DNA of 64,000 nucleotides, taken from NCBI RefSeq assembly GCF_921293095.1, contig NC_060256.1, positions 89,683,851 to 89,747,850 on the forward strand, read 5' to 3'. Below the pieces are notes generated by a model, which saw only the letters and a program-made list of their open reading frames with translations, did not search any database and was not told the origin of the DNA. The translations under genes were made by a program, and so were the position numbers. The stretch's first letter is position 1. Every line of letters begins with the position of its first letter. Shown here one piece after another: positions 30,601 to 63,480 of this stretch. Origin of the DNA: Ischnura elegans (taxonomy: Eukaryota; Arthropoda; Insecta; Odonata; Coenagrionidae).

Positions 30601-31325
30601 ACGCACGAGTTAATGTCGGATTGGATGAACCCGAGAATGAAAGCAAAAACACACTACGTATCTTCCCAACTTGCGCGTATGAATGAACAGAAAATGGACC
30701 CTGTTCTAATTTGGTTCATGTATTCCTACATGTTCCGTTTCGGTTCACAAAAATCATTCATGCAGTAAGGCCTGGCTACATGGTACATTAGCATGTACTA
30801 GTTAATGTTTAAATGTATGAACGCGTGAATGAACACGAAAATGCACCGTTTAACCTCCCAACTAGTGCAAACGCATGAACAGAAATTAGAACCTGTTCTA
30901 ATTTGGTTCGTGCATTCGTACTTATTCCGTTCCAGTCCACGAAAATCGTTCATTTTATTTCGGATACAGCTCTTATCGGCCATTTTATACCAGGGTAATC
31001 AACAAATTTAGCGAGTAAACGTACACGAACAGCCATGCCCTGGATCGGGAAACGTACCCAGGCGGGAAACGAACCCTCGCGACCTCTTCATTGGCAGGCG
31101 AGGACGTTACCCCGCCGCCACCGAGGCCGGCGAAACTGTACAAGTTCATGTACTAGACTACTGCGCGTCAGCATGTGTCGCGTAACCAGGACTTAAAGAA
31201 ATAAGCGTAGCTTTTATTTCCAAATATCGACTTTTACACTTACGTGCGTAAACGGTGGACCATAGAGAGAGCAGGAAGATCAGTTGAAAGCTCCGGTGTA
31301 GTCGGCTGGCCGTCTTCGTTTCCAT
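9318..31325 (-). CDS. Protease A: CLIP-domain trypsin-like serine protease, seven exons (complete model)
   Basis: Seven exons join with consistent phases: 31325-31244, 21423-21272, 17017-16711, 15239-15143, 12050-11851, 10525-10427 and 9637-9318. The coding length is 1257 bases, giving 418 residues plus stop. Order: signal peptide (1-27); clip domain with six cysteines (34, 44, 50, 75, 85, 86); Gly-rich linker; activation cleavage after Arg158 with new N-terminus IFGG; catalytic His203 (TAAHC), Asp266 (DIALL) and Ser362 (GDSGGPL). Asp356, six residues before Ser362, predicts trypsin-like cleavage after Arg/Lys. Known for the family: secreted zymogens acting in haemolymph cascades (Toll activation, prophenoloxidase activation). 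The Easter/PPAF-like layout, including the extra Cys pair after the His exon, suggests the CLIPB class. The exact substrate is unknown. Introns are full of transposons, and intron 1 is 9.8 kb. Main uncertainty: whether an extra exon hides in intron 1. Confidence 0.88.
9860..10100. other. GC-rich purine tract in intron 6 of protease A
   Basis: CGCCCCGGGGCCGGG, then GGAGGGGGAGGAGAGGAAGGG and GGAACGGGAGAGGGAAAA. It is much richer in G and A than the AT-rich intron around it. No frame with recognisable protein. Could be a decayed GC-rich transposon or an imported simple sequence. Confidence 0.5.
10427..10525 (-). CDS. Protease A exon 6: PICLP / AGWG exon
   Basis: 99 bp, ATTTTCAG acceptor and GTGAGTATT donor. 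It encodes DYIIPICLPNGAAITKRY followed by ESMIVAGWGRTEN. PICLP carries the cysteine that pairs with the light chain, and VAGWG is a conserved strand of chymotrypsin-fold proteases. It enters and leaves in phase 1. The equivalent exon of protease B has the same length and about three quarters identical residues. Confidence 0.92.
11439..11822. mobile_element. Hairpin MITE with CAGGGTGTCCC ends
   Basis: TA-flanked element whose two arms (about 11441-11605 and 11660-11820) are reverse complements, each beginning CAGGGTGTCCCATTTAT. The short centre includes GAATTGCCGAATG. TA target and long arms suggest a foldback Tc1/mariner derivative. It ends about 29 bp from the protease A exon 5 donor. Confidence 0.85.
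11851..12050 (-). CDS. Protease A exon 5: catalytic aspartate exon
   Basis: 200 bp, TTTTTACAG acceptor and GTGAGTGATT donor. It encodes VGVRLGEHNTETEPDC, an RLCADPAQDF stretch with an extra cysteine pair, HPQYQSESRDKHH and DIALLRL (catalytic Asp266). The DC...LCAD cysteine pair in the surface loop is typical of Easter/PPAF-like CLIP proteases. A hairpin MITE ends only about 29 bp beyond the donor. Confidence 0.93.
12300..13370 (-). pseudogene. Degraded LINE ORF2 3' part (intron 4 of protease A)
   Basis: Minus strand, 13365-13180: AHKTQAIISGNSRLL, LPPIRLQTSIVKL and RYLGIILSTNFIW, resembling the segment after the RT active site in Jockey-like LINEs. Further on, 12480-12310: KRSFLYVGPKVFNVLP, a C-terminal motif. 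The DNA between is AT-rich and decayed. Same strand as the protease. Confidence 0.6.
13482..14144 (+). mobile_element. 660-bp TA-flanked MITE, copy 3 (intron 4 of protease A)
   Basis: Full-length copy, 663 bp, with both ends and the GTGACGTCAC palindrome near 13953. It lies in the intron between the His and Asp exons, on the opposite strand to the gene. Confidence 0.9.
14350..15000 (+). pseudogene. Degraded LINE reverse transcriptase, RTE-like lineage
   Basis: MKGNCTRKTILALGLL, FVDLEKNLLYNLKWNLM, VYRNLVAEIKPGQ and GKGVRQGCTLS are RT domain motifs; a frame slip follows TLSLP, after which FNVYIKKAVCEMKEKA and RFVDDKAVIAKK continue. The active site is VDD instead of the usual ADD. Related 3' sequence occurs at 36186-36530. 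Confidence 0.7.
15143..15239 (-). CDS. Protease A exon 4: catalytic histidine exon
   Basis: 97 bp, TTTTTCAG acceptor and GTAAGTA donor. It encodes TGRQFLCGGVLISNRYV followed by LTAAHCVRGIG. The histidine of TAAHC is the catalytic base (residue 203), and the two cysteines form the conserved His-loop disulphide. It enters in phase 1 and leaves in phase 2, joining the neighbours exactly. It is too short to appear as a free-standing ORF. Confidence 0.9.
15770..15915 (+). mobile_element. LINE 3' tail (GTAGATGTAGATG family)
   Basis: GTGGTGTGCATGTGGGAGTCC, GATCACCCCCTGCCAAACACC, GGTGGCTCGC, then TATTATGTAGATGTTGTAGATGTAGATG. Same tail as 52545, 55335 and 63470. A preceding GCACATGTTGTGGTGT unit is duplicated. 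Confidence 0.75.
15976..16143. mobile_element. Inverted-repeat element with GC-rich centre
   Basis: Arms GGTTAACCTCGTCTTGTGTC and GACGCAAGACCTGGGTTAAC flank a GC-rich core containing GCCGCCATCGTTGACG and CTGCTGCTGGCGGC. In intron 3 of protease A. Likely a MITE. Confidence 0.5.
16270..16630 (+). pseudogene. LINE fragment, C-terminal RT region
   Basis: LNKIQRKAVRSVKN, a stop, then NQMFSESGWELLEAQRLRDRL, and NSFFPRTI-like FVFPPNYK. The downstream CGTAAACGGCTGTTGTCCTAACACCC tail matches the minus-strand tail near 53210. Distinct from but related to the 51190 LINE. Confidence 0.6.
16711..17017 (-). CDS. Protease A exon 3: end of clip domain, Gly-rich linker, activation site
   Basis: 307 bp between a TTCCCAG acceptor and a GTGAGTA donor. 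It opens with GNRPFVCCPN, supplying the last two clip cysteines. A Pro/Ser/Thr linker follows, then two imperfect GNQGGGGG repeats. Next is TDICGADANDR|IFGGEE, the zymogen cleavage site. Cys151 of TDICG should tether the light chain to the catalytic domain by a disulphide, as in the family. The exon then starts the protease domain (EYPWLALLQY). Confidence 0.92.
17265..17509. mobile_element. Inverted-repeat element with 48-bp arms
   Basis: Arms 17265-17312 and 17462-17509 are reverse complements with one or two differences (ATTTCGTCCGTACGACATG ... CATGTCGTACGGACGAAAT). The centre of about 150 bp is AT-rich. In DNA just upstream of protease A exon 3 (intron 2). Confidence 0.7.
18324..18772. mobile_element. 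CCTGAATCAC inverted-repeat MITE rich in GATCGCGATC
   Basis: Ends CCTGAATCACTCGATCATTT and AAATGATCGTGTGATTCAGG. Many short TCGCGA/GATC palindromes inside. A related element lies at about 6250-6685. No coding frame. Confidence 0.7.
19309..19680 (+). repeat. Tandem duplication of ~180 bp
   Basis: GCATGTGAATTCTATTAGATCAG through CCAATGATGGCTTTG occurs at about 19340 and again at 19520, with GGCATAAATGCGAAAA-type ends. It lies inside an element bounded by CTGACAGGCA (19118) and TGCCTGTCAG (19778). Confidence 0.65.
19858..20225 (+). repeat. Four-unit tandem array, ~90-bp period
   Basis: Each unit has CAACCAGTTTTACAATC, AAAAGTCTGGAAA, ATGATAGTGTGAGAAGTTTG and AAAGTCAGGNAGTCATCTT. Units start near 19860, 19945, 20026 and 20114, with part of a fifth at 20199. 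Units 1/3/5 (CAACCAG) and 2/4 (AAAAAACAG) alternate, so the higher-order unit may be ~170 bp. Confidence 0.65.
20237..20545 (+). mobile_element. CAGGGGCGTAGC MITE, copy 1
   Basis: Starts CAGGGGCGTAGCTAGGAATA and ends CTCGCTGCGCCACTG. Interior includes GGCGCAACTAATACTTACG. hAT-like termini. Its relative 21540-21847 is in the opposite orientation 1 kb away. Confidence 0.7.
21272..21423 (-). CDS. Protease A exon 2: N-terminal part of the clip domain
   Basis: 152 bp between a TTTCAG acceptor and a GTGCGT donor. It encodes 51 residues beginning NFGGQCQTPNGQQGQCI and ending SQCGFQ, with four of the six clip cysteines. The Cys spacing and the LPPSTVDFLRRSQCG stretch are characteristic of clip domains. 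The first codon is split with exon 1 (phase 1), and the exon ends in phase 0. Confidence 0.9.
21540..21847 (-). mobile_element. CAGGGGCGTAGC MITE, copy 2
   Basis: Reverse copy of 20237-20545: starts AGTGGTGTAGCGAGG with a long G run (21546-21559) and ends CCAAGCTGCGCCCCTGA. It lies about 115 bp from the protease A clip exon. Confidence 0.7.
22245..22341 (+). mobile_element. LINE 3' tail cut by MITE copy 4
   Basis: GGTGTGCATGTGGGATTAC, GATCACCCCCTACCAAACACC and GGCTGGCTCGCAAGATA, then directly MITE copy 4. Confidence 0.7.
22342..23000 (+). mobile_element. 660-bp TA-flanked MITE, copy 4 (intron 1 of protease A)
   Basis: Full-length copy, 659 bp, inserted exactly at the end of a LINE tail (22245-22341). 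The GTGACGTCAC palindrome is present. Confidence 0.9.
23206..23442. mobile_element. AGGCCTGG-type hairpin MITE (intron 1 of protease A)
   Basis: Recognised by GGTTACACGATACATCACAC at one end, GAACCTGTTCTAATTTGG in the middle, and GTGTACCGTGTAAACAGGCC at the other end. Confidence 0.7.
23682..24000 (+). repeat. Diverged tandem duplication, ~165 bp
   Basis: TTGGCAACACTGTAATG...TATCTCGTCTCGTTCACCCCAA and TTGGCAACACTTTCATTGG...TATCTCGTCTCGTTCTCTCCAA. Both lie in intron 1 of protease A. Confidence 0.55.
24001..26684. other. Intron 1 of protease A, unassigned part
   Basis: AT-rich. The ~80-bp segment at 24262-24340 (GGGTTATTGCGGTGGGCTTTAG) recurs in diverged form at 25182-25260. The 97-codon frame 24590-24883 has no motif. 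A degraded SINE-like GTAGGTCCGTGGGTCGAC head lies near 25800. Confidence 0.35.
26685..26862 (-). repeat. Dispersed repeat with ACGTAATATTACGT palindromes, copy 1
   Basis: Contains two AATATTAC palindromes (about 26786 and 26826) and GCATACAAAGCC. It is the reverse complement of 31685-31860 with moderate divergence (CAGTAAACTGGA-type motif shared). Within intron 1 of protease A. Confidence 0.6.
26880..27165 (+). mobile_element. LINE-like 3' tail with TTCTA repeats
   Basis: AT-rich 3' UTR-like DNA ending GGACAAACTTGTCCCGGAATAATAAATG and TTCTATTCTATTCTAC, a tail shape usual for Jockey-type LINEs. No coding part survives. Confidence 0.5.
27210..27300 (-). pseudogene. Short LINE RT fragment
   Basis: Minus strand encodes LEYAASIWDPMQKDLIHDL, the conserved VEYASSVWDP motif after the RT domain in CR1/Jockey-like LINEs. 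About 90 bp. Confidence 0.6.
27301..28100. other. Intron 1 of protease A, unassigned part with overlapping frames
   Basis: Opposed open frames of 127 codons (minus, 27412-27795) and 101 codons (plus, 27414-27719) overlap in locally GC-richer DNA. Neither shows a family I recognise. May be a degraded retroelement. Confidence 0.3.
28101..28690 (+). mobile_element. 660-bp TA-flanked MITE, copy 5 (decayed)
   Basis: The 5' terminal sequence is lost or scrambled; recognisable from GGCCTGAATCGAAAG onward. Several internal deletions, for example around 28270-28340. The CRE-like GTGACGTCAC survives near 28500. The right end reads GATGAAGGACATTGCTCTA, a degraded terminus. An older copy than the others. 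Confidence 0.8.
28691..30574. other. Intron 1 of protease A, unassigned part
   Basis: AT-rich. A tRNA-like stretch near 30130-30190 (GGCTTTGAACCCGGATC, a box B on the minus strand) suggests an old SINE. Otherwise nothing recognised. Confidence 0.35.
30575..30768. mobile_element. AGGCCTGG-type hairpin MITE, partial
   Basis: AAGGCCTGGTTAAATGGTG start, CTGTTCTAATTTGGTTCATG middle. The right end is cut at the start of the next copy (30771). Two copies lie head to tail. Confidence 0.65.
30771..31195. mobile_element. AGGCCTGG-type hairpin MITE interrupted by a SINE
   Basis: Starts AAGGCCTGGCTACATGG, has CTGTTCTAATTTGGTTCG in the centre, and ends CGCGTAACCAGGACTT. About 140 bp including a tRNA-SINE fragment (31035-31131) breaks the right arm. 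It ends about 50 bp from the protease A exon 1 donor. Confidence 0.65.
31035..31131 (-). mobile_element. tRNA-derived SINE fragment nested in a hairpin MITE
   Basis: On the minus strand: GCCGGCCTCGGTGGCGGCGG, CTCGCCTGCC, then GAGGGTTCGTTTCCCGCC. It is the same head as the other SINEs. It interrupts the AGGCCTGG-type hairpin 30771-31195 and lies in intron 1 of protease A, about 110 bp from the exon 1 donor. Confidence 0.65.
31244..31325 (-). CDS. Protease A exon 1: start codon and signal peptide
   Basis: The ATG at 31325 opens 27 residues: a basic start (METKTASRLHR), a hydrophobic core (FQLIFLLSLW), and an Ala-Tyr-Ala-like end (STVYA) typical of a signal peptidase site. The exon ends at a GTAAGTG donor leaving one base (phase 1), which fits the clip exon. 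An in-frame ATG lies further upstream, but this one sits directly before the basic and hydrophobic stretch. The join to exon 2 across 9.8 kb rests on phase and domain logic, not transcripts. Confidence 0.72.
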
Positions 31326-50584: not shown

Positions 50585-53500
50585 CTGAAATTAATAATGA
50601 GATGTTTGCGGTATAATAACACGTTGAAAAATAAGAATTAATATGAATAATAAAATCAGAAGAACCAAGCGTGATGGAGTGGAATTTTTCCATGTTGAAA
50701 TAAACACTTGCAACATTTTTAAGGTACAATATCGTTGGAGCCAAGGTGCAAAATTTCAGCCATTTAGTACCATGATGAAAATGATGTAGTAACATTAAAG
50801 CCTAAGTCGTTAATGAAAGTTTACTGTCGTAGAAAATTGAAAGTGTTTATTTCTTAATAAATATGAATAAACACGAAATTTATAATAAGGCGTTGCCAGC
50901 CTCGGTGGCGGCGGATCTATGTCGTCGCCTGTCAAACAAGAGATTGCGGGTTCGAATCCTGTGTGGATAGGTTGCACTTATCCAGGGAATGGTAGTTCGT
51001 GCACGTGTAATAGTAAAATTGTTGAAAACCCGATGTAAAAGGTCATTCTGCCGTTTTCGGTGGCACGGGAATAAATAAATAAATTGTAACTCAAAAAGAT
51101 ACCATTGATCACGTCATCATCATTACTCAGCAATCCTAACATTGTTTGACGCAGCTCTCTACTGAGAACTGAACTCCATTGAGAACTGAAATTTAATGAG
51201 AACAGAACATGGATTCAGGAAAAGTAGATCATGCGAAACCCAGTTAGCGCTTTTCGCCCACGATATTTTAGTCTCCGGAGAAGACAACATTCCAGTAGAC
51301 GCGATTTTACTTGATTTCAAAAAGGCATTTGATAAAGTGCCCCACGGAAAGTTAATAACAAAACCGAAATCTTATGGTCTAGATGAAGATTTCATTTCCT
51401 GGATAGAGAACTTTTGAGCGACCGCGTCCAAAGAGTAGTATTGGACGGTGCAGTCTCCAATGGGTTTAGAGTCACTTCTGGCGTCCCTCAGGGTAGTGTC
51501 ATTGGCCCACTCCTATTCCTTCTTTATATAAACGACATTGGCGAAGTAGTACACAGTAAGTTACGATTATTTGCTGACGACGCTATAGTTAACAGAGAAA
51601 TCCGTTTCAGCAAAGATACAGATGAACTAACGAATGACCTTGCTGCTACCCAGGCTTGGTGCGATGCATGGCAGTTAGAATTAAATTCAGAAAAATGCGT
51701 AATAATGAATTTCTGGAAGAAGAATAACTCCCTACAACGAAGCTATATAATTCGGGGTACCCAATTAGAGACTGTTGAATCCGTGAAATATCTAGGAGTT
51801 AGACTCAATAATGATCTATCGTGGAATAAACATATTCGGGAAATAACCGGTCAAGCTAATCGTAAAATGGGTTTCGTTAAAAGATTACTAGGAAAGTGCG
51901 ACGACAAAGTGAGAGGAATTAGCTACTTTTCCCTCGTTAGACCCCATGTAGAATACGCTGCCAGTGTTTTGGACCCTCATGAAAAAGGCTTAATAACAGA
52001 GTTAGAACGCGTTCAAAGAAGAGCTGCCAGGTACGAGAGAGGTCGTTACGATAGTCTTGTTAGTGTAACTGACCTCTTAGATAAACTCGGATGGGAATCG
52101 CTGTCAGACCGTAGATTGAAAAGTTGACTAAACCTTTTAGATAAATTCAAGAGCAGTGTCTTTACTAACGAAGCTAGGCATATCTTACGGACGCCAACAT
52201 ACTACGGAAGATCAGGTCATATAAATAAAATAAGAGAGACAGAGTGTAGAACAGACAGATTCAGAATGTCTTTTTTCCACGATCAATAAGAGATTATAAC
52301 GGCAGCGATAGAACTCATAAATAGATTAGATGACTTGTAGTGTAGCCTACGAACCTATGTAAAACTTAATGCATGTTTCTTAATTTTATTATTATTTCTA
52401 ACAGCATATGGTAGTATAATTTGTTAGTATGCGTGACGTATTTTGTACTGTGTGGTGTGCGTGTTCTAATTGCATTGTGCATGCTGGTGATTGATCACCC
52501 CCTGCCAAACACCCTAGAGGTGGCTCGCAGGATATAATGTAGATGTTGATTCCTCTTTTGTCCTCTCTAGATAGGGCGAGTCTGAGGTAGCTTGATATCA
52601 CTATGGTGAAAAGAACATACCGAACGTCATCATAATTCAGCTACAATTATGCACTGAACATTTTTCAAAAAGCTCAATTTTAAAAAAGACACCAGACTGC
52701 GTGCGGATGGGACAGATACAGCCTTAATAGATATTTTTGGGCCCCCCAAAATCCCACCCATGGCTATGTGTCTGATGCTATCATGGGTAATAGCCTAGAG
52801 TAGTCACTTGGATGCTAATGGAAAAAAATGAATCGTATATGGACAGCTTATTGTAAGATCATCATCATCATTAGTCGACAGTCCTATGAATAGTTTGATG
52901 CACCTCCTTATACTTCTCTACTATTCGCTAGTCTATTCATAGTGACTTGTTTCTTCTCTTTTACATCTCTTATAATCTGTCCTATGCAACTCATTCGGGG
53001 CCGTCCCTTGCCATTCTTCCCTTCCACCTGTCCTTCTACGATAGTATTCAGCAGGTCATACGGTTTCATAATATGGTCAAATAAGTTGTCTCGTCTTCTC
53101 CTTAAGGTTTTTAGAAGACTTCTCTTTTCTCTCACTGTTCTTATCACCCCCTCATTACATCTACATCTACATAATACCCCGCAAGCCGCCTAAAAGGTGT
53201 ATGGCAGGGGGTGTTAGGACACCAGCCGTTTATGGCTATAAAAAAAAATGAAGGGCTCTAACGAGGTTGGGAGATTACTTACTAGGTCGATCCGTTTTAT
53301 CTTCATCATTCTTCGGTAGCGCCATATTTCGAATGCTTCCACTCTTGACTTATCTGCTGCTGTCATCAACAACATGATCATGGATTTATTGATATGAATA
53401 GGATGAAAATATCATACCGAACGGCAGTATGATGCAGCTAAGAGTATGCACCGAACGATTTCCAAAAAGCACAATTTAAAAAAAAGACACCAAACTGCGT

Positions 53501-56500
53501 ACAGATGTAACCCACTTAGAGTATTACAAAACAGAGGGTACGAAGTCTATTTGGATCGCAAATTTCTGCACAGATATAACAAGAACATGAACTAACTAGC
53601 CGAATGTAAGACTTTGAATCAACTGTTGGAATTATGACCACTATAAACAATTATATAAAAGGTTTTAAATTTTCCTCATTTTTGCTTTAAAGTCAGTCAT
53701 TTTGTGCATATTTGGATTTATTCATTGGAAAAAAATAAAAAATGGGAGTACATGAAAAATTATCGCTAAAAATTGCAGCTCAATCGGACATTATTTGACC
53801 CTGACTGTTGATAGAAATTGCCAACATTTTGAAGAGCTCTGCCTCAGTAGGTTACTTATTGTACTGTGTTCATTTGGGTTACATGTTTTTGAAAATTTGA
53901 AGTTGCTTAAATTCAATTATGGAAACAGATCCTATAAAACACACAGTGACGTAATAATACGCAAACCTTTAAAGTAGGGATGAATCTATTCCAAATTTCT
54001 ATTCTTGATTCCAACGATTCTCGGACACAGAATCGGAATCGAGAATCGATCGCCTAAAGTTGATTCCGATTCCATCGATTCCAGGAAGATAAAGTTTTAG
54101 AGAAAAGAATATAGATCCCAAAAGATGGTGAAAACGTTTCCCATTACTGGCAATGTATTTATTAGACTTGAAAATGTAGCGTTAAAATATCTGTATATTC
54201 CTCCCAGCACCATATTGAGTAAAATACTATTGAGCACATCAGGCACTCATGCGATGCAAAAAGAAATAGAATCAATCTCGACAGAACAATGATGCTTGTT
54301 TTCTTATACAAAAATATGTATGAATAGATTGTAATTTTCATTGCACATCGTCATTTAATTTTAACAATCCCGTCATTTAATTTTAACACTATTTAGCATT
54401 TATTACACTTACTCTTCTCGGTTCTTCCCCATCCAGCCACAATCATGGACTCCGCCTCGTAACGCTTTTGAACTGCAGCACCAGTGGGAAGGCATATTGG
54501 AATGACGTAGTCTATGACAGGGAATAGAAGGAGAAAACAGTTTGAAAACATAAAAAAGTTACGACGAGACAAAACATTATACAAGAGGAAAACGAATTTT
54601 AATGCAAAAATACCTAGTTGCAGCACAGAGTGTTACCTTCATGGTGATAGTAAAAGAGAAAGCAAGCCCAAGCATAATGCTATAAACTTTTTTCCATTTG
54701 TGTGAATTTCACTAACTATGAAGTAATTTAGGAATGAGTGTTACATATTAGCTGAAATTAAACAATAACCTCTTATTTTTGGGCTCAAGCCGCCTCTGGA
54801 CAGTCAATATTATTGTACAGTATTTTGGTTTGTGCAATATCATTGATGGTTCGTTCGATTGATCTTTATATAGACTCGGGTGAGAATCTCTGTCAGACCA
54901 TAGACTGAAAAATAAACTAAACCTATTAGGTAAATTCAAGACCAGTGTATTTTCTGACGAAGTTAGCCGTATCTTACTTACGCCAACCTGCTACGTGAGA
55001 TAACATAAATAAAATAAGAGAAACTGTAGAACAGAGAGATTCAGAAGGTATTTTTTCCACGATCAGATGTCAGTGATTACAACGACAGCGTTAGAACTCA
55101 CAAACAGATTAGATGACTTGCAGTGTTGCCTACCTACTTATGTATACCCTAATGCATGTTTCTGAATTTTATTATTATTTCTTACAGCATGTGGTAGTAT
55201 AATTTTTTAGTATTCGTGACGTTTTTCGGACCGTGTGGTGTGCATGTGGGAGTCCTCTTGCATGCTGCATGCTGGTGATGGATCACCCCTGCCAAACACC
55301 CTAGAGGTGGCTCGGAGGGTATTATGTAGATGTATTCGGGAAAAATGGAAAGGTTGTGCAATATATTGCATGATTTTCAAAATATTGAAAATACATTGCG
55401 CAAACGGGATAAAATGTTGCCGTTTGTTGGCAATGTTGTGCAGTATTCTGTCAGTTAGACTCCAGCAGTCGTTTGTACCAGTCGTCTCAACATTGTGTTA
55501 CTATCATGGGTGACAAGAAATCCGAATAAGATATTATTGTGGAATGTATTGAGGTATAACGTGGTCTTCCGGCTCTGTGGGATGTGAAGTGCAAAGATCA
55601 TAGTAATCGTGCGAAGAAAGGGTAGCGGTACAATGTTATTATGAAAAAGTTCCGCGAATAATACGGATGTGGAGAAACAAAAAGTAGCAAAAAAATTAAG
55701 TCTTTGTGAAAAATCTTCCGAAAAGAATAGAGTGATTTCCTTCATCAAAGAAAACGAAAGGCATTGATTGCGATTCGTAACCCACCATCAGCGTATTCAT
55801 AATACACAAATTAATTGGTTTTAGAAATACCGATTTAGACGAATGGCAACGGTCAATCTTAACTGCATTTGGAAAAGGCCAGATTGGCGCCCATGCGATG
55901 CCACTCCACGTGACGTCACAGGGACCTAGTTTCTATACGAGTAGATAGGAGTTTTACATCGTCTGAGATTACCAATGCATGCACGAGGCACAGAGCTCAG
56001 GGAAACATGTCTTAATAATCACCTATTAAAACTGGCCAAGGTCGGAAAGTTTCCTTCGTTTGATAAGGTATTAATAATCCTTATTTAAGCCAAGCGCTAC
56101 CATCTAGCAGGGTACTCTGCTACCTGCTAGCATCCTGCGTCGTATCAGCGCTCAAAGCCTCGCCCCAAGGTCACCTCACTTGCGGCAGCGGGAACCAGAA
56201 CGACGTCATACGGAGTTTTCCCAGCATTCCTACCTAGCCGTCGCGTTTTCGCGCGCTTGAAAATTTTCACTTTTCATTTAATCGCTAAAGATAGATATCG
56301 TCATTTAAAAATCTAAGAGCGTGAAATGCGTACTCCAGGAGTAATAATCTTTCGAGTAAGGCAATAAAAAAATAATAGGAAACCACCCTATTGAAACGGA
56401 TTCACGGGGCAGAGAAGTGTGGTGCCAGTGATGATGACTTGTGGCCACAGCAGTTATCACACAACAAAATACATTTTTACTCAACACGTTGACTTAATGA

Positions 56501-58188: not shown

Positions 58189-58232
58189 TAAACGATAGAT
58201 AAACTCGGTTGGGAATCTCTATCGGACCGTAG
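58189..58232 (+). mobile_element. LINE fragment left of the Transib-like element
   Basis: GATAAACTCGGTTGGGAATC encodes DKLGWESLSDR, cut at CCGTAG by the transposon. It continues at 63025. Confidence 0.8.
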
Positions 58233-59224
58233 CACAGTGGGCGGAAATCGGAAAAAGCCGGACAAAATTACAAAATGGCTTTTTTTGAGTTATATACTTG
58301 AAACTTCGCAAGTATACTCAAAAATGATTGAACTTTATTGATATGTACCTCATTTGACATAGATCCTACCCGTTACTGAGATACAGAGGCTCAAACGTGA
58401 GCAAATTTCCATAAAAACGCCCGTCTTCAATTTTCTCTGAAAATCTTCCAAAGTAAGTGAATGGTGAAGTTATGGGTGGATTCTTGCCGAATAAAAAACC
58501 ACATAATCTGTTATCATGGTTTTTTTTATTTAATATTCCGTAATCTTAAAGAATACAGTCCATTAATTCTTACCGTGCAGTAACAAAATGGCGGATACTG
58601 TTTTTCGACGAAGTTTTACATTTAGGTAGAGTTTCAAATAGGTTTTCGGCAAGGTCGCGCAGAGTAACTTATATGAGAGCATTGTTTGAAGATTTTTTGA
58701 GGTCTTTATGCAGTTTTCTTTGAAATAAGTTTGCGTCGCCGGAAATTACATTGATTTTTCGATCGCGCGGCAGGGTTCCTCTCCATGCGTCGGGAGTTGG
58801 ATTAGCCGCGCCGCGGTAAGGTTATTGAAGCTATATGGGTTTTAACGCTCAACATTCACCGTTTTTATGTTTTGCTTCAAGACACCGATTCTCAAATGGT
58901 CTATGGTGAAGACAGTGGAGGTTTTTTCATGCGATGTACTTGCACGTTTCATCGAAGTTCATTTCGTTATCTTCGGATACGATCGAAGACCATGCTTCTA
59001 TTAAAAGCGTTCAAACCTCGACAAAGTGAGTTGTTTTCTGGGACTCATACAAAAAGACCTACCAGAAAGATACCAGCTGAGACCCTTATACCTTCTTCAA
59101 TCACCGATCCCTGACCCTCAGGATTCTAATTTCGAAAACGGTCGTTTTATGACACCCTGGAGCGGAGCCCTTGGCCGTCTTAACGGAGGTATTTCCATGG
59201 GAACTTCTAGCTTTTTTAAAATGT
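58233..59224 (+). repeat. Left terminal inverted repeat of the Transib-like element
   Basis: About 992 bp, reverse complement of 62033-63024. The start is the heptamer CACAGTG, followed by A-rich blocks GAAAAAGCC and ACAAAATTA. It contains an open frame of 80 codons at 58872-59114 that is repeated, residue for residue, in the right copy. Long homopolymers (T7, T8) have equal lengths in both arms. Confidence 0.9.
58872..59114 (+). other. 80-codon open frame inside the terminal repeat (duplicate at 62143-62385)
   Basis: The frame begins MLQDTDSQMVYGEDSGG and is rich in Arg, Ser and Thr. No domain is recognised. An overlapping frame (59026-59250) is also kept in both arms. Identity between arms is explained by the arms being identical DNA, so conservation as protein is not shown. 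It could be a 5' exon of the transposase, or chance. Confidence 0.3.
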
Positions 59225-59471
59225 GCATCATACCCTCAGTTCTACTTTGACTTACAGATTACCATGTCTTTACACGTTTACCATACGTTCTTCCCCGTGT
59301 ACGCATTAGGGCATTAGATAATCATAGTTTCGACAAATTTATTATTTCTAAATTTTACATAGGCTCCATCCGCAATTCCATAGAAAATGCCACCTCACAT
59401 TATTACATGACTTGATATCTACAAAATAATATTGGAATTGGTGAAAAAATCATTCACTCGGTAAAAAATAT

Positions 59472-60814
59472 TTGCTCCATTATTTATCGCGGAGGCTGAA
59501 TTTAAGACAAGACCCTGATGCTCTGAAATTTCTCAATGACTTTTTGACAAAACGCATCCTATGGCCATACCTTAAGAAATGGGTAGAGTGTTCTCGAAAT
59601 AATGAACGATTTTTGTGTCGACACAAAAGTTGGCTCGCTGACTCTATAACATTTCCAGAATTTGTTATGCATCACTTTCCCGATACTTCAACGACAGCCG
59701 GTTGAGTATTGTATTTTTGTACAAATCTATTCCTCTCAAATTGATTGATTAAATAAAATTCCCCCGGTAGCTTCATGCTACAAAATTCATATTATATTTG
59801 CCAGGCATTCTAGGGCGGCCAAAAAAATGTCGCACCTCATGTGTTAGATCACGCAGAAGAAAATTCAAACTTAAAAAACTACTGCTACTACTGCTGAGCT
59901 TGCTCTCGCGGCATCTGTGAGTTTGAGAGAGAGGGGAGACACTGCAGCAGCTCACCTAATTGCAGAAATAACAACTACGACCCCTACTCGGGCTAAGAGA
60001 GTTCTTTCAAAGTGGAGGACGAGTGAAAAGGTCCACCCTGAGATGACAGTGGAAGAGGCTCTGTCATTGATGATTGCCTCTGATTTGACCAAGCGTCAAC
60101 ATCGGTCTTTTCGTAGGACAGCTCTGAGCCATGGACACGAATTGTATCCCACTTATGATAGAATAGCGATAGCAAAAAAAGGCAGCTTATAACGAAGGGA
60201 TTAAAATAACTGAGACCATGTGCGAAGTAAACCTTCAAGCACCACTGAACCACACCATATTGGGAACAATAGCCTGCTTAGCCACCACTTCCACCTCTCA
60301 AGAATTAAAATGTGTGGTGAACTACAGATTAATCTCTAAGTACGGTTTTGATAGAGGTTCGGGTCACTCTCAATATAAGCAAATGTGGCAACAAGTGGAT
60401 GCTTCAGATAAATTCCTAGTCATTAGTTCCCTTGTATCTCTTAGTTTGATTAACGGCGCTACAGGTAACGACTGAAGTTTCCACTTTCTCTTGGTTAATT
60501 ACATTTATCTCTAAACTTTTGATAAAGAATTTAAATTGCATCGGAGGCACTTCTCGCATTTAGGCTCTACAATTTTAGATAACACTATCTGGGAAAATCC
60601 ACTGCCGACGTCGACACGATTTTGTCATCCCATCCGCTTTAGGCAAAAAAAGAGACAAAAGAAGTTACAAAATCAGAAAGACATTACCTATATCGAAAGG
60701 CAGGTGGATGGCCTTAATGATTTCAACTCTGGATTTTACACGATCAAGTTCTGTTTACTACTGACCATGATCAACGGAAAAGTAATGCTTATATTGCTTG
60801 CCTTATTTTCCTAA
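59472..60814 (+). pseudogene. Broken Transib/RAG1-like transposase (N-terminal and middle part)
   Basis: Fragments in order: 59472-59700 (LRQDPDALKFLNDFL, KWVECSRNNERF, SWLADSITF); likely intron 59701-59813; GRPKKCRTSC then SRRRKFK; frame slip in the A run near 59873; REKG-like SLRERGDTAAAHLIAEI, TPTRAKRVLSKWR, ELYPTYDRIAIAKK; frame slip at the A7 run 60174-60180; VNLQAPLNHT; YGFDRGSGHSQYKQ, whose Asp at 60350 is the likely first catalytic acid; intron 60465-60527; IWENPLPTSTRFCHPIRF; then LLLTMINGKV. The order and motifs resemble Transib transposases, related to RAG1 in its core. The second catalytic Asp, the zinc-binding region and the catalytic Glu are absent. At least two frame slips and loss of the C-terminus make it non-functional. 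The family call is from recognition, not a search. Confidence 0.6.
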
Positions 60815-62032
60815 TTTTTTCTTAATCTTAAAACCCATTTAATTCATTATCCTACAGGGAAGTATAGTCATTTTGAAATTAAGAAAAACGATAGTTTTTA
60901 GTTTGCAACACACTGAAGGACAGCTGAATCATGGGGTTCTAAATCTGCGGTGCAATAGCGTCGGGTATGAATAACTTAGGAGATGTAAAATATCGTTCAC
61001 CTGATATCGATAAATATTCTGTTGGTTTGTGTACGCTGAGCTGCCACATATGATTTTCTGAATGCATATTGGATATGTCGTATCGATTGGAATTTAAACA
61101 GTGGCATTTGATAATTTTAATTTTAATTTATTTTAGTTAGGAAAGGAATGCTAAGAAAATTTTCAGCTAAAATTGATAATATAAATTAAAATAACTATTT
61201 TGAAAAAGATGTTCGGGGATTTATTGAAAAACGTACATACAGGATTTATTGATTTCAGGTTTATTGAAATTTATTGATTACAGATTTATTGAAATTTCTA
61301 CGCTCCACAAGCAAATTAAAATCACTTTCACAAATTCTGCGCACTCAAGAGAACTTAACTTTCCTTCACCACAGTCACAGTAGAACTAAGGGTATAATAC
61401 ACGTTTTAAAAAATCTAGAAGTTCCCGTGGAATTGTCGACCTAAACTACCCTGTCTTCATCGTATCTGCTTCAACAACTTTCTAGTGCTTACTGTAGGTG
61501 CAGAACATGAGATTTTCACGCGATCCATAATTTTCGTCCATAAAATTTTGATTATTTAGTTGCCATCAGTAATCTATGTTCATGATAGGTAATGTTAAGT
61601 CACTGAACACTGCATTATTAGCTATCTTTTTGAACATAATTCTCTTCATCTCAAGAGTAAAACATTAGATTTAATGACGCTTTTTGCAGTTCGTTATTTG
61701 TTCAATTTGCCGACTTGGGTGGCGGCGGGGTAAAATGCTCGCCTGTCAAAGAAGTGTCGGGTTCGAGTCCCGCATGGGTAAGTTTCCTTTATCAAGCGCA
61801 ACGTTGTCGCAGAATAATTTATTCACTCCATTTATTTAAGTATTGATCCGTCGGTACGTATGAATAAAGTATGAATTTTGTAACGTAAAGATAAATGTGG
61901 AATAGTATTTATTCAATAAATTTGAAGGAAATAGATTTTTACAAAAATACCAACTCCCGTAGAAGTATAGAGAAAGTAATGCAAAGCATATTCCGGAAAT
62001 GTTATGGATTCAGCGGGCCAATTTTTGAAGCG
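60815..62032. other. Non-coding interior of the Transib-like element
   Basis: AT-rich. Three near-repeats of GATTTATTGA(A)ATTT lie at 61215-61305. A diverged copy of the inner arm end is at 61370-61430, and a SINE at 61709. No remaining transposase motifs were found here. Confidence 0.5.
61709..61880 (+). mobile_element. tRNA-derived SINE inside the Transib-like element
   Basis: It starts GCCGACTTGGGTGGCGG (box A-like) and has GGGTTCGAGTCCCGC (box B) about 45 bp later, then an unrelated tail with ATTTATTTAAG. The same head occurs at 38816, 50895 and, inverted, 31131. It sits between the transposase relic and the right arm. Confidence 0.7.
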
Positions 62033-63024
62033 ACATTTTAAAAAAGCTAGAAGTTCCCATGGAAATACCTCCGTTAAGACGGCCAAGGGCTCCGCTCCAG
62101 GGTGTCATAAAACGACCGTTTTCGAAATTAGAATCCTGAGGGTCAGGGATCGGTGATTGAAGAAGGTATAAGGGTCTCAGCTGGTATCTTTCTGGTAGGT
62201 CTTTTTGTATGAGTCCCAGAAAACAACTCACTTTGTCGAGGTTTGAACGCTTTTAATAGAAGCATGGTCTTCGATCGTATCCGAAGATAACGAAATGAAC
62301 TTCGATGAAACGTGCAAGTACATCGCATGAAAAAACCTCCACTGTCTTCACCATAGACCATTTGAGAATCGGTGTCTTGAAGCAAAACATAAAAACGGTG
62401 AATGTTGAGCGTTAAAACCCATATAGCTTCAATAACCTTACCGCGGCGCGGCTAATCCAACTCCCGACGCATGGAGAGGAACCCTGCCGCGCGATCGAAA
62501 AATCAATGTAATTTCCGGCGACGCAAACTTATTTCAAAGAAAACTGCATAAAGACCTCAAAAAATCTTCAAACAATGCTCTCATATAAGTTACTCTGCGC
62601 GACCTTGCCGAAAACCTATTTGAAACTCTACCTAAATGTAAAACTTCGTCGAAAAACAGTATCCGCCATTTTGTTACTGCACGGTAAGAATTAATGGACT
62701 GTATTCTTTAAGATTACGGAATATTAAATAAAAAAAACCATGATAACAGATTATGTGGTTTTTTATTCGGCAAGAATCCACCCATAACTTCACCATTCAC
62801 TTACTTTGGAAGATTTTCAGAGAAAATTGAAGACGGGCGTTTTTATGGAAATTTGCTCACGTTTGAGCCTCTGTATCTCAGTAACGGGTAGGATCTATGT
62901 CAAATGAGGTACATATCAATAAAGTTCAATCATTTTTGAGTATACTTGCGAAGTTTCAAGTATATAACTCAAAAAAAGCCATTTTGTAATTTTGTCCGGC
63001 TTTTTCCGATTTCCGCCCACTGTG
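62033..63024 (-). repeat. Right terminal inverted repeat of the Transib-like element
   Basis: Mirror of the left arm, ending CCGCCCACTGTG at 63024. The 80-codon frame reappears at 62143-62385. A diverged second copy of the innermost ~60 bp, in the same orientation, lies at about 61370-61430 inside the element. Confidence 0.9.
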
Positions 63025-63480
63025 CGTAGGTTGAAAAGTAGACCAAACCTTTTAGATAAATTCAAGAGCAGTGTCTTTTCTAACGAAGTTAACCATATTT
63101 TACGGACGCCAACGTACTACAGAAGATCAGATCATATAAATAAAATAAGAGAGATAGATTGCAGAACAGACAGATTCCGAATGTCATTTTTTCCACGATC
63201 AATAAGAGATTATAACAGTAGCGATAGAACTCATAAATAGATTAGATGACTTGTAGTGTAGCCTACGAACCTATGTAAAACTTAATGCATGTTTCTTAAT
63301 TTTATTATTATTTCTAACAGCATATGGTAGTATAATTTGTTAGTATACGTGACGTTTTTTGGATCGTGTGGTGTGCATGTGGGAGTCCAATTGCATGCTG
63401 CATGCTGGTGATTGATCACCCCCTGCCAAATACCCTAGAGGTGGCTCGCAGGGTATTATGTAGATGTAGATATTGATCGT
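63025..63480 (+). mobile_element. LINE 3' end right of the Transib-like element
   Basis: Continues as RLKSRPNLLDKFKSSVF, HILRTPTYYRRSDH, INKIREIDCRTDRFRMSFF and PRSIRDYNSSDRTHK with a stop at 63240, then the usual tail GGTGGCTCGCAGGGTATTATGTAGATGTAG. The reading frame is open to its natural stop, so this LINE copy is younger than 51190. Confidence 0.85.

What the first reader, a model, noticed from the sequence alone, without database searches (positions are those of the whole stretch)
58233..63024. RAG-like (Transib) transposon with CACAGTG ends and a reconstructable empty site
Seen: termini CACAGTGGGCGG / CCGCCCACTGTG, direct repeat CGTAG on both sides, and a LINE that reads through once the element and one CGTAG are removed (compare 52079-52140). 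Known: Transib elements make 5-bp GC-rich target duplications, have termini like CACWRTG, and are the proposed ancestors of RAG1. Inferred: this element belongs to that superfamily. Its very long arms (about 992 bp) would be unusual, since Transib arms are normally tens of bases.
Basis: partly seen in the sequence, partly recalled or inferred. Interest (0 to 1): 0.85.

Follow-up and report, generated by a model that had tools for sequence, protein, structure and literature searches.

The report
Transib transposon with self-matching kilobase arms
A broken but widespread relative of the transposon thought to have given rise to the vertebrate antibody recombinase carries two roughly 1,000-letter mirror-image arms that stay nearly identical within each copy although copies differ from one another, which suggests that one arm is recopied from the other.

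Summary
The element spans 58233-63024 (4792 bp), its 992-bp arms are 100% identical, CGTAG flanks it on both sides, and joining the flanks restores a LINE found at 52078-52363. Transib membership is supported. All 16 complete copies examined (window plus 15 siblings) have an exact 5-bp duplication, mostly CGNCG; transposase pieces match open Transib transposases of the same genome and, weakly, solved HzTransib.

The unusual part is the arms. Outer arms differ by 0.19% within a copy but 2.1% between copies and pair as sisters in 15 of 16 copies. The adjacent inner arms do the opposite. The right inner arm carries an inverted piece of the 5' transposase exon, and the C-terminal part of the transposase is found in none of the 16. 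Best reading: the 5' end was copied inverted over the 3' end, breaking the transposase; the family (3,483 termini) then spread in trans while its arms were recopied from one another, as proposed for Galileo. My paper searches showed no foldback-type Transib. The autonomous partner and the host are unidentified.

The parts
58228..58232 (.). target site duplication CGTAG, left
   Evidence: 5-bp duplications in 16 of 16 copies
63025..63029 (.). target site duplication CGTAG, right
58233..63024 (+). whole element, 4792 bp, gene orientation +
58233..59224 (+). left (5') outer arm, 992 bp
   Evidence: 100% complementary to the right arm
62033..63024 (-). right (3') outer arm, 992 bp
58233..58239 (+). 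terminal heptamer CACAGTG
58262..58270 (+). nonamer-like ACAAAATTA after a 22-bp spacer (mirrored at 62987-62995); the label is by resemblance
   Evidence: symmetric 20-22 bp spacers of Transibs in a legend of PMC8355894
63018..63024 (-). terminal heptamer, right end
59445..59705 (+). f0, frame related to an N-terminal Transib exon
   Evidence: 32% identity, E=3.6e-9, to an exon of the second Transib family (L060)
59595..59798 (+). 5' inner arm (element 1363-1566), diverged inverted repeat
61863..62035 (-). 3' inner arm, about 76% like the 5' inner arm; 61949-62035 encodes antisense f0 residues 58-86
61373..61432 (-). internal third copy of arm segment 59193-59252, 88%
59875..60180 (+). f1, transposase fragment
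   Evidence: 33% to L041, 32% to L039; HzTransib E=0.38
60182..60457 (+). f2, transposase fragment in a different frame from f1; first catalytic Asp (KYGFD) codon at 60350-60352
   Evidence: HzTransib E=0.0012
60524..60781 (+). f3, transposase fragment
   Evidence: 32-34% to L039 and L041
60967..61107 (+). f4, transposase fragment with in-frame TGA at 61051-61053
   Evidence: 33-36% to L041 and L039; 120 of 150 scored genome copies hold at least one stop here
61711..61790 (+). tRNA-like stretch (A-box and B-box look) shared by most copies
   Evidence: no ARAGORN or Rfam match
52078..52363 (+). uninterrupted LINE copy that shows the empty site
   Evidence: 92.3% to the joined flanks

Best explanation
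A copy of a high-copy, apparently non-autonomous family of the Transib superfamily with foldback-type architecture. SHOWN: RSS-like ends, exact 5-bp CGNCG-type duplications, Transib transposase remnants without the C-terminal part, and outer arms of up to about 1 kb that are nearly identical within a copy and less alike between copies, beside inner arms that show the opposite. INFERRED: (1) an ancestral element lost its 3' end when about 1.6 kb of its 5' end was copied inverted in its place, giving two matching ends and removing the C-terminal catalytic part; (2) the broken element spread by cut-and-paste with a Transib transposase supplied in trans; (3) during repair of breaks, for example after excision, one end copies the other arm, so the outer arms are overwritten again and again while the inner parts drift. 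Copying that overruns the arm shifts its boundary. My odds: Transib 0.97; homogenised arms 0.9; non-autonomous 0.85; 5'-end origin of the right arm 0.7; copying during break repair as the route 0.5.
For: Duplications: 16 of 16 exactly 5 bp, C first and G last in 16 of 16. Transposase: colinear fragments, 32-38% to L039/L041; L039 to HzTransib 7e-117 and to RAG1 entries from 3e-6. Missing C-terminus: three C-terminal queries give nothing better than E=0.23 in the 16 copies, while f1-f3 are found in 14 and f4 in 12 of 16; no scored f4 copy of 150 has an open frame over 70 aa. Homogenisation: 0.19% within against 2.14% between copies, sisters in 15 of 16; inner arms 75-81% between sides within a copy (12 of 16 copies with both sides) but 90-99% to the window's own side. 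5'-end origin: antisense f0 in the 3' inner arm. Copying traces: arm end 20 bp further in the window and L009, rejoined at TGT; variant shared by both arms in L023 but not in L011.
Against: The closest HzTransib matches by sequence are weak (E=0.0012 and 0.38) and Pfam names no transposase. L021 breaks the sister pattern and has 8 differences in 700. 30 of 150 scored f4 copies carry no stop. The siblings were picked from the 40 best matches to the window, so old copies were not seen. No autonomous partner with these ends was found. L009 and the window share the same overrun junction, so they may be one event.
Confidence: 0.8

Rival explanations
1. Ordinary Transib with long arms inherited unchanged from a recent master copy; no arm-to-arm copying is needed.
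For: Arm-arm differences are few (0-9 mismatches over 720-1019 bp), as expected of young insertions.
Against: Without copying, arms that separated before the copies did must differ at least as much as the copies do. Observed: 0.19% within against 2.14% between, sisters in 15 of 16, while the adjacent inner arms behave as simple inheritance predicts.
Confidence: 0.05
2. The arms are homogenised by mismatch correction within a folded single strand (hairpin of the element) rather than by template copying during break repair.
For: Kilobase perfect inverted repeats can pair within one strand (general knowledge); outer arms homogenised, diverged inner arms not.
Against: In the window and L009 the right arm runs 20 bp into sequence that other 3' arms lack and rejoins at a 3-bp match, easier by copying than by mismatch correction.
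Confidence: 0.25
3. The arm identity is an assembly or polishing artefact: reads from the two arms of a copy were mixed.
For: Arms are 0.7-1 kb repeats and no reads could be inspected.
Against: Mixing would act across all copies, yet copies keep about 2% differences and five copies keep arm mismatches at 4 to 9 positions or with a gap (L011, L013, L018, L021, L022).
Confidence: 0.05
4. A foldback element of another superfamily, for example Galileo-like (P superfamily), that resembles Transib only at its termini.
For: Long arms alike within a copy are reported for Galileo (PMC3573991 passages); no Pfam match names Transib.
Against: 5-bp duplications in 16 of 16 against 7 bp in the Galileo passages; colinear Transib homology of f1-f4.
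Confidence: 0.02

Closest known systems
HzTransib (Helicoverpa zea; PDB 6pqn and five further entries)
   Same: 5-bp duplications and TIRs (PMC1852546 passages); homologous transposase, directly at E=0.0012 and through L039 at 7e-117.
   Different: HzTransib is 3518 bp with a 489-aa frame; its TIRs are called long in the text, length not seen. Here the C-terminal part is absent and the arms approach 1 kb.
Second Transib family in the same genome (loci L047-L066)
   Same: Ends CACAGTGGTCCGGATCGCGAAAAAGTTGGACAAAAATC in 16 of 20 loci, some with small changes; pentamers such as CGACG or CGCCG beside the end seen; related N-terminal exon.
   Different: In L047 the two ends 1832 bp apart resemble each other over only about 39 bp, though their flanks differ, so they may not be one insertion. 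It keeps a C-terminal exon; f1-f4 gave no match in these loci.
Galileo (Foldback-like, P superfamily, Drosophila)
   Same: Long TIRs 98-100% identical within a copy, less alike between copies; arm extension proposed by copying TIR1 in place of TIR2 (PMC3573991 passages).
   Different: Different superfamily: 7-bp duplications in the passages, P-type transposase.
TransibSU / RAG-like transposons and V(D)J RSS
   Same: CAC heptamer, A-rich second block, 5-bp duplications (PMC4411706 and PMC8355894 passages).
   Different: No RAG2-like gene was looked for or seen; both ends here are identical, so there is no 12/23 asymmetry.

Membership tests
Transib superfamily | 5-bp GC-rich target duplication | tested here: met
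   16 of 16 complete copies, mostly CGNCG; CGNCG named for Transib in a PMC4735498 passage
Transib superfamily | termini like CACWRTG (motif from the finding and recall) | tested here: met
   CACAGTG at both ends of all 16 complete copies, found by a terminus pattern allowing 4 mismatches
Transib superfamily | transposase homologous to known Transib | tested here: met
   HzTransib E=0.0012; colinear with L039/L041, and L039 to HzTransib 7e-117
Transib superfamily | three catalytic acidic residues (DDE) | tested here: not met
   In this copy and family only: first Asp present, C-terminal part absent from 16 of 16, second position not mapped. This bears on autonomy, not on descent.
Transib superfamily | activity: excision and 5-bp insertion by a Transib transposase | not testable with these tools
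   needs an experiment
RAG-like (RAGL) transposon | paired RAG1-like and RAG2-like genes | not tested
   no RAG2 search was made
Galileo / P superfamily | 7-bp duplication (value from PMC3573991 passages) | tested here: not met
   16 of 16 copies have 5 bp
Foldback-type architecture | long inverted arms nearly identical within a copy | tested here: met
   arms 720-1019 bp, 0-9 mismatches; sisters in 15 of 16

The most novel reading that the evidence does not exclude
The first foldback-type Transib: an inverted copy of the 5' end replaced the 3' end and the catalytic C-terminus, giving two identical RSS-like ends, and arm-to-arm copying, perhaps during repair of the breaks left by RAG-type excision, has kept the arms matched ever since while the family grew to some 1,700 copies (half of 3,483 termini).
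Probability: 0.45. Interest if true: 0.6.

Novelty: new variant of a known kind. Interest (0 to 1): 0.5.

Why it matters
Transib is the proposed source of the V(D)J recombinase and of its recognition signals. A Transib family with kilobase arms that are matched within each copy would be a natural record of how breaks near RSS-like ends are repaired, and would show that the arm dynamics described for Galileo arise in a second superfamily. The contrast of outer and inner arms within one molecule makes arm-to-arm copying directly testable on many copies.

Tried and rejected
Pfam scan of four fragments: no transposase match; bZIP_2 at E=0.005 and other hits under their cut-offs taken as chance. 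Pfam RAG1 model on the genome: 10 hits, none over the cut-off; it led to the Transib frames in L037-L044. Search for an autonomous partner with a C-terminal query: 150 scored of 3757 candidates; of the 20 loci inspected, 16 hold ends of the second family and 4 hold no such end. Seven hits that I picked by eye lie near, but outside, termini among the 100 listed, five of them 2881-2887 bp away. The 5' end of the L041 element was not found in the 1.4 kb added. I first read the 1019-bp arms of L011 and L023 as an extension of the same kind as in the window; the alignments point to recombination with the internal third copy instead. The repeat (TTAGG)6 gave 1 hit and no help with the host. The tRNA-like stretch gave no ARAGORN or Rfam match. 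Paper searches: Transib with RAG1 and terminal inverted repeats, 45 papers, 30 listed; with 'long terminal inverted repeats' 0; with 'long inverted repeats' 0; with 'foldback' 3, one mention of Transib each, listing only; with 'long TIRs' 11, 10 listed, one opened; with nonautonomous, inverted repeats and gene conversion 4, listing only. Kapitonov and Jurka 2005 is not held; what I say of it rests on recall.
Full report
The element lies at 58233-63024 with termini CACAGTGGGCGG and CCGCCCACTGTG, flanked by CGTAG. Its arms, 58233-59224 and 62033-63024, are complementary at 992 of 992 positions. The flanks joined with one CGTAG removed align across the junction to 52078-52363 at 92.3% and to 54867-55144 at 79.5%. 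The window lies in contig C11 of a 1.72-Gb genome whose host I could not identify.

It is one of many. The 25-base terminus with up to two mismatches occurs 1735 times on one strand and 1748 on the other; the reversed control gives none. Only 100 places are listed, all exact and all on C1 and part of C2. Of these, 58 form 29 convergent pairs under 10 kb, 15 of them 4.2-4.9 kb and six 0.7-1.3 kb long; 42 are unpaired. I fetched 20 regions chosen from the 40 best matches to the window's first 300 bp, so the sample is biased to close relatives. Fifteen hold a complete copy and five do not. With the window this makes 16. All 16 have identical 5-bp flanks, and none matches at 6-9 bp. C stands first and G last in 16 of 16, G second in 14, C fourth in 11. 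A passage of PMC4735498 gives CGNCG as the Transib insertion preference; a passage of PMC4411706-bp duplicates typical of Transibs.

The transposase is Transib. Direct matches to solved structures are weak: HzTransib 6pqn is the best hit for two fragments, at E=0.0012 and 0.38, and Pfam gives nothing useful. The Pfam RAG1 model, below its cut-off, led to Transib frames elsewhere in the genome. The 550-aa frame of L039 matches HzTransib at 7e-117 and RAG1 entries from 3e-6. Fragments f1-f4 of the window element align in order to L039 and L041 (L041 is in two frames) at 32-38% identity; the unbroken 243-aa frame of sibling L035 matches L041 at 3e-28. The first catalytic Asp is present (KYGFD); next to it this copy has R where L035 has G. 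The rest is damaged: f1 and f2 lie in different frames and f4 holds an in-frame TGA. Of 150 scored f4 copies (592 candidates), 120 hold at least one stop and 30 none, by my count of the list; no open frame there exceeds 70 aa. L039 and L041 run through this point in one frame. C-terminal queries from L039, L041 and L056 find nothing better than E=0.23 in the 16 complete copies, while f1-f3 are found in 14 and f4 in 12 of them. I conclude that the copies examined are non-autonomous; I did not examine most of the family for the C-terminus.

The ends look like recombination signals: CACAGTG, 22 bp, ACAAAATTA. A second Transib family of this genome has CACAGTG, 22 bp, ACAAAAATC in most of its ends seen, one base from the vertebrate nonamer ACAAAAACC (recalled). 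A legend in PMC8355894 describes Transib TIRs with symmetric 20-22 bp spacers, so this is not new in itself.

The arms are the main finding. In the outer 700 bp the two arms of a copy differ by 0-8 bases (mean 0.19%; 0 in 9 of 16), arms of different copies by 2.14% on average; in a tree the two arms are sisters in 15 of 16 copies, L021 being the exception. Over the full arm (720-1019 bp) four of 16 copies, the window, L009, L014 and L015, have no mismatch, and the most is 9. Simple inheritance does not give this, because arms that separated before the copies did must differ at least as much as the copies. The element carries its own control. Just inside, positions 1363-1566 have a diverged inverted counterpart on the other side. 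Within a copy the two sides are 75-81% alike (12 of 16 copies hold both), while the same side of other copies is 90-99% like the window's. Adjacent stretches of one molecule thus show opposite patterns.

There are traces of copying. In 8 of 16 copies the arms part at positions 967-975; in four they end earlier, at 720-897, with deletions or insertions; in four later. In the window and L009 the 3' arm runs to 992 with 5'-arm sequence and rejoins the 3' side at a shared TGT; since both share the junction this may be one event. In L011 and L023 (1019 bp) the 3' side joins an internal third copy of the arm segment (61373-61432 in the window). In L023 both arms carry the variant of that copy, in L011 only the 3' arm does.

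The right arm seems to come from the left. The 3' inner arm encodes, antisense, residues of exon f0 (window: residues 58-86, 58.6%, E=8e-8; L027: residues 51-86, 67%, E=1.5e-13), and f0 resembles an exon of the second family (E=3.6e-9). The 3' side lacks positions 973-1362. The simplest history, which is inference, is that about 1.6 kb of the 5' end was copied inverted over the 3' end. This would remove the C-terminal coding part and give identical ends in one step.

Mechanism. Mobilisation in trans is inferred from high copy number and missing C-terminal coding. Recopying during break repair is my preferred route because of the shifted arm ends; correction in a folded strand remains possible. 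Passages of PMC3573991 report 98-100% TIR identity within Galileo copies and propose that TIR1 is copied in place of TIR2, extending the arms. So it works like Galileo without being a member of that family.

Novelty. In the searched library Transib does not occur with 'long terminal inverted repeats' or 'long inverted repeats'; it occurs with 'foldback' in three papers, one mention of Transib each, seen only as a listing. HzTransib is said to have long TIRs (passage), length not seen, so long arms alone may not be new. Repbase was not available. I rate this a new variant of a known kind.

Limits. No autonomous partner with these ends was found. No reads were available.

Noticed in passing
window 61711-61790: A tRNA-like stretch (GGTTCGAGTCC B-box look) inside the element is 95-100% identical in the 12 other copies and fragments of it found (6 of 13 rows at 100%, window included), higher than much of the interior; a related stretch lies at 31048-31143 (78%). 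It may be a captured SINE part or a Pol III promoter (no match).
   Followed up: partly
G000 C3 (both ends), C4, C7, C8, C11, C19: C-terminal Transib hits occur in pairs about 80-115 kb apart within about 2.3 Mb of contig ends, on the same strand, as if large blocks were shared between chromosome ends.
   Followed up: no
G000 C1:5251568, C1:32181823, C1:108870070, C2:2564565, C2:6439242: Unpaired termini of this family lie 2881-2887 bp from, and outside which, a C-terminal Transib fragment with a stop is found: a repeated composite unit.
   Followed up: partly
L039 (C5:56108159), L040 (C4:58034803): Long open Transib transposase frames of 550 and 497 aa; L039 matches HzTransib at 7e-117, so potentially active Transibs may exist in this genome.
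   Followed up: partly
G000 C2:5525455-5526164 and five other pairs: Six of 29 paired copies are only 710-1253 bp, too short for two full arms: short derivatives of the family.
   Followed up: no
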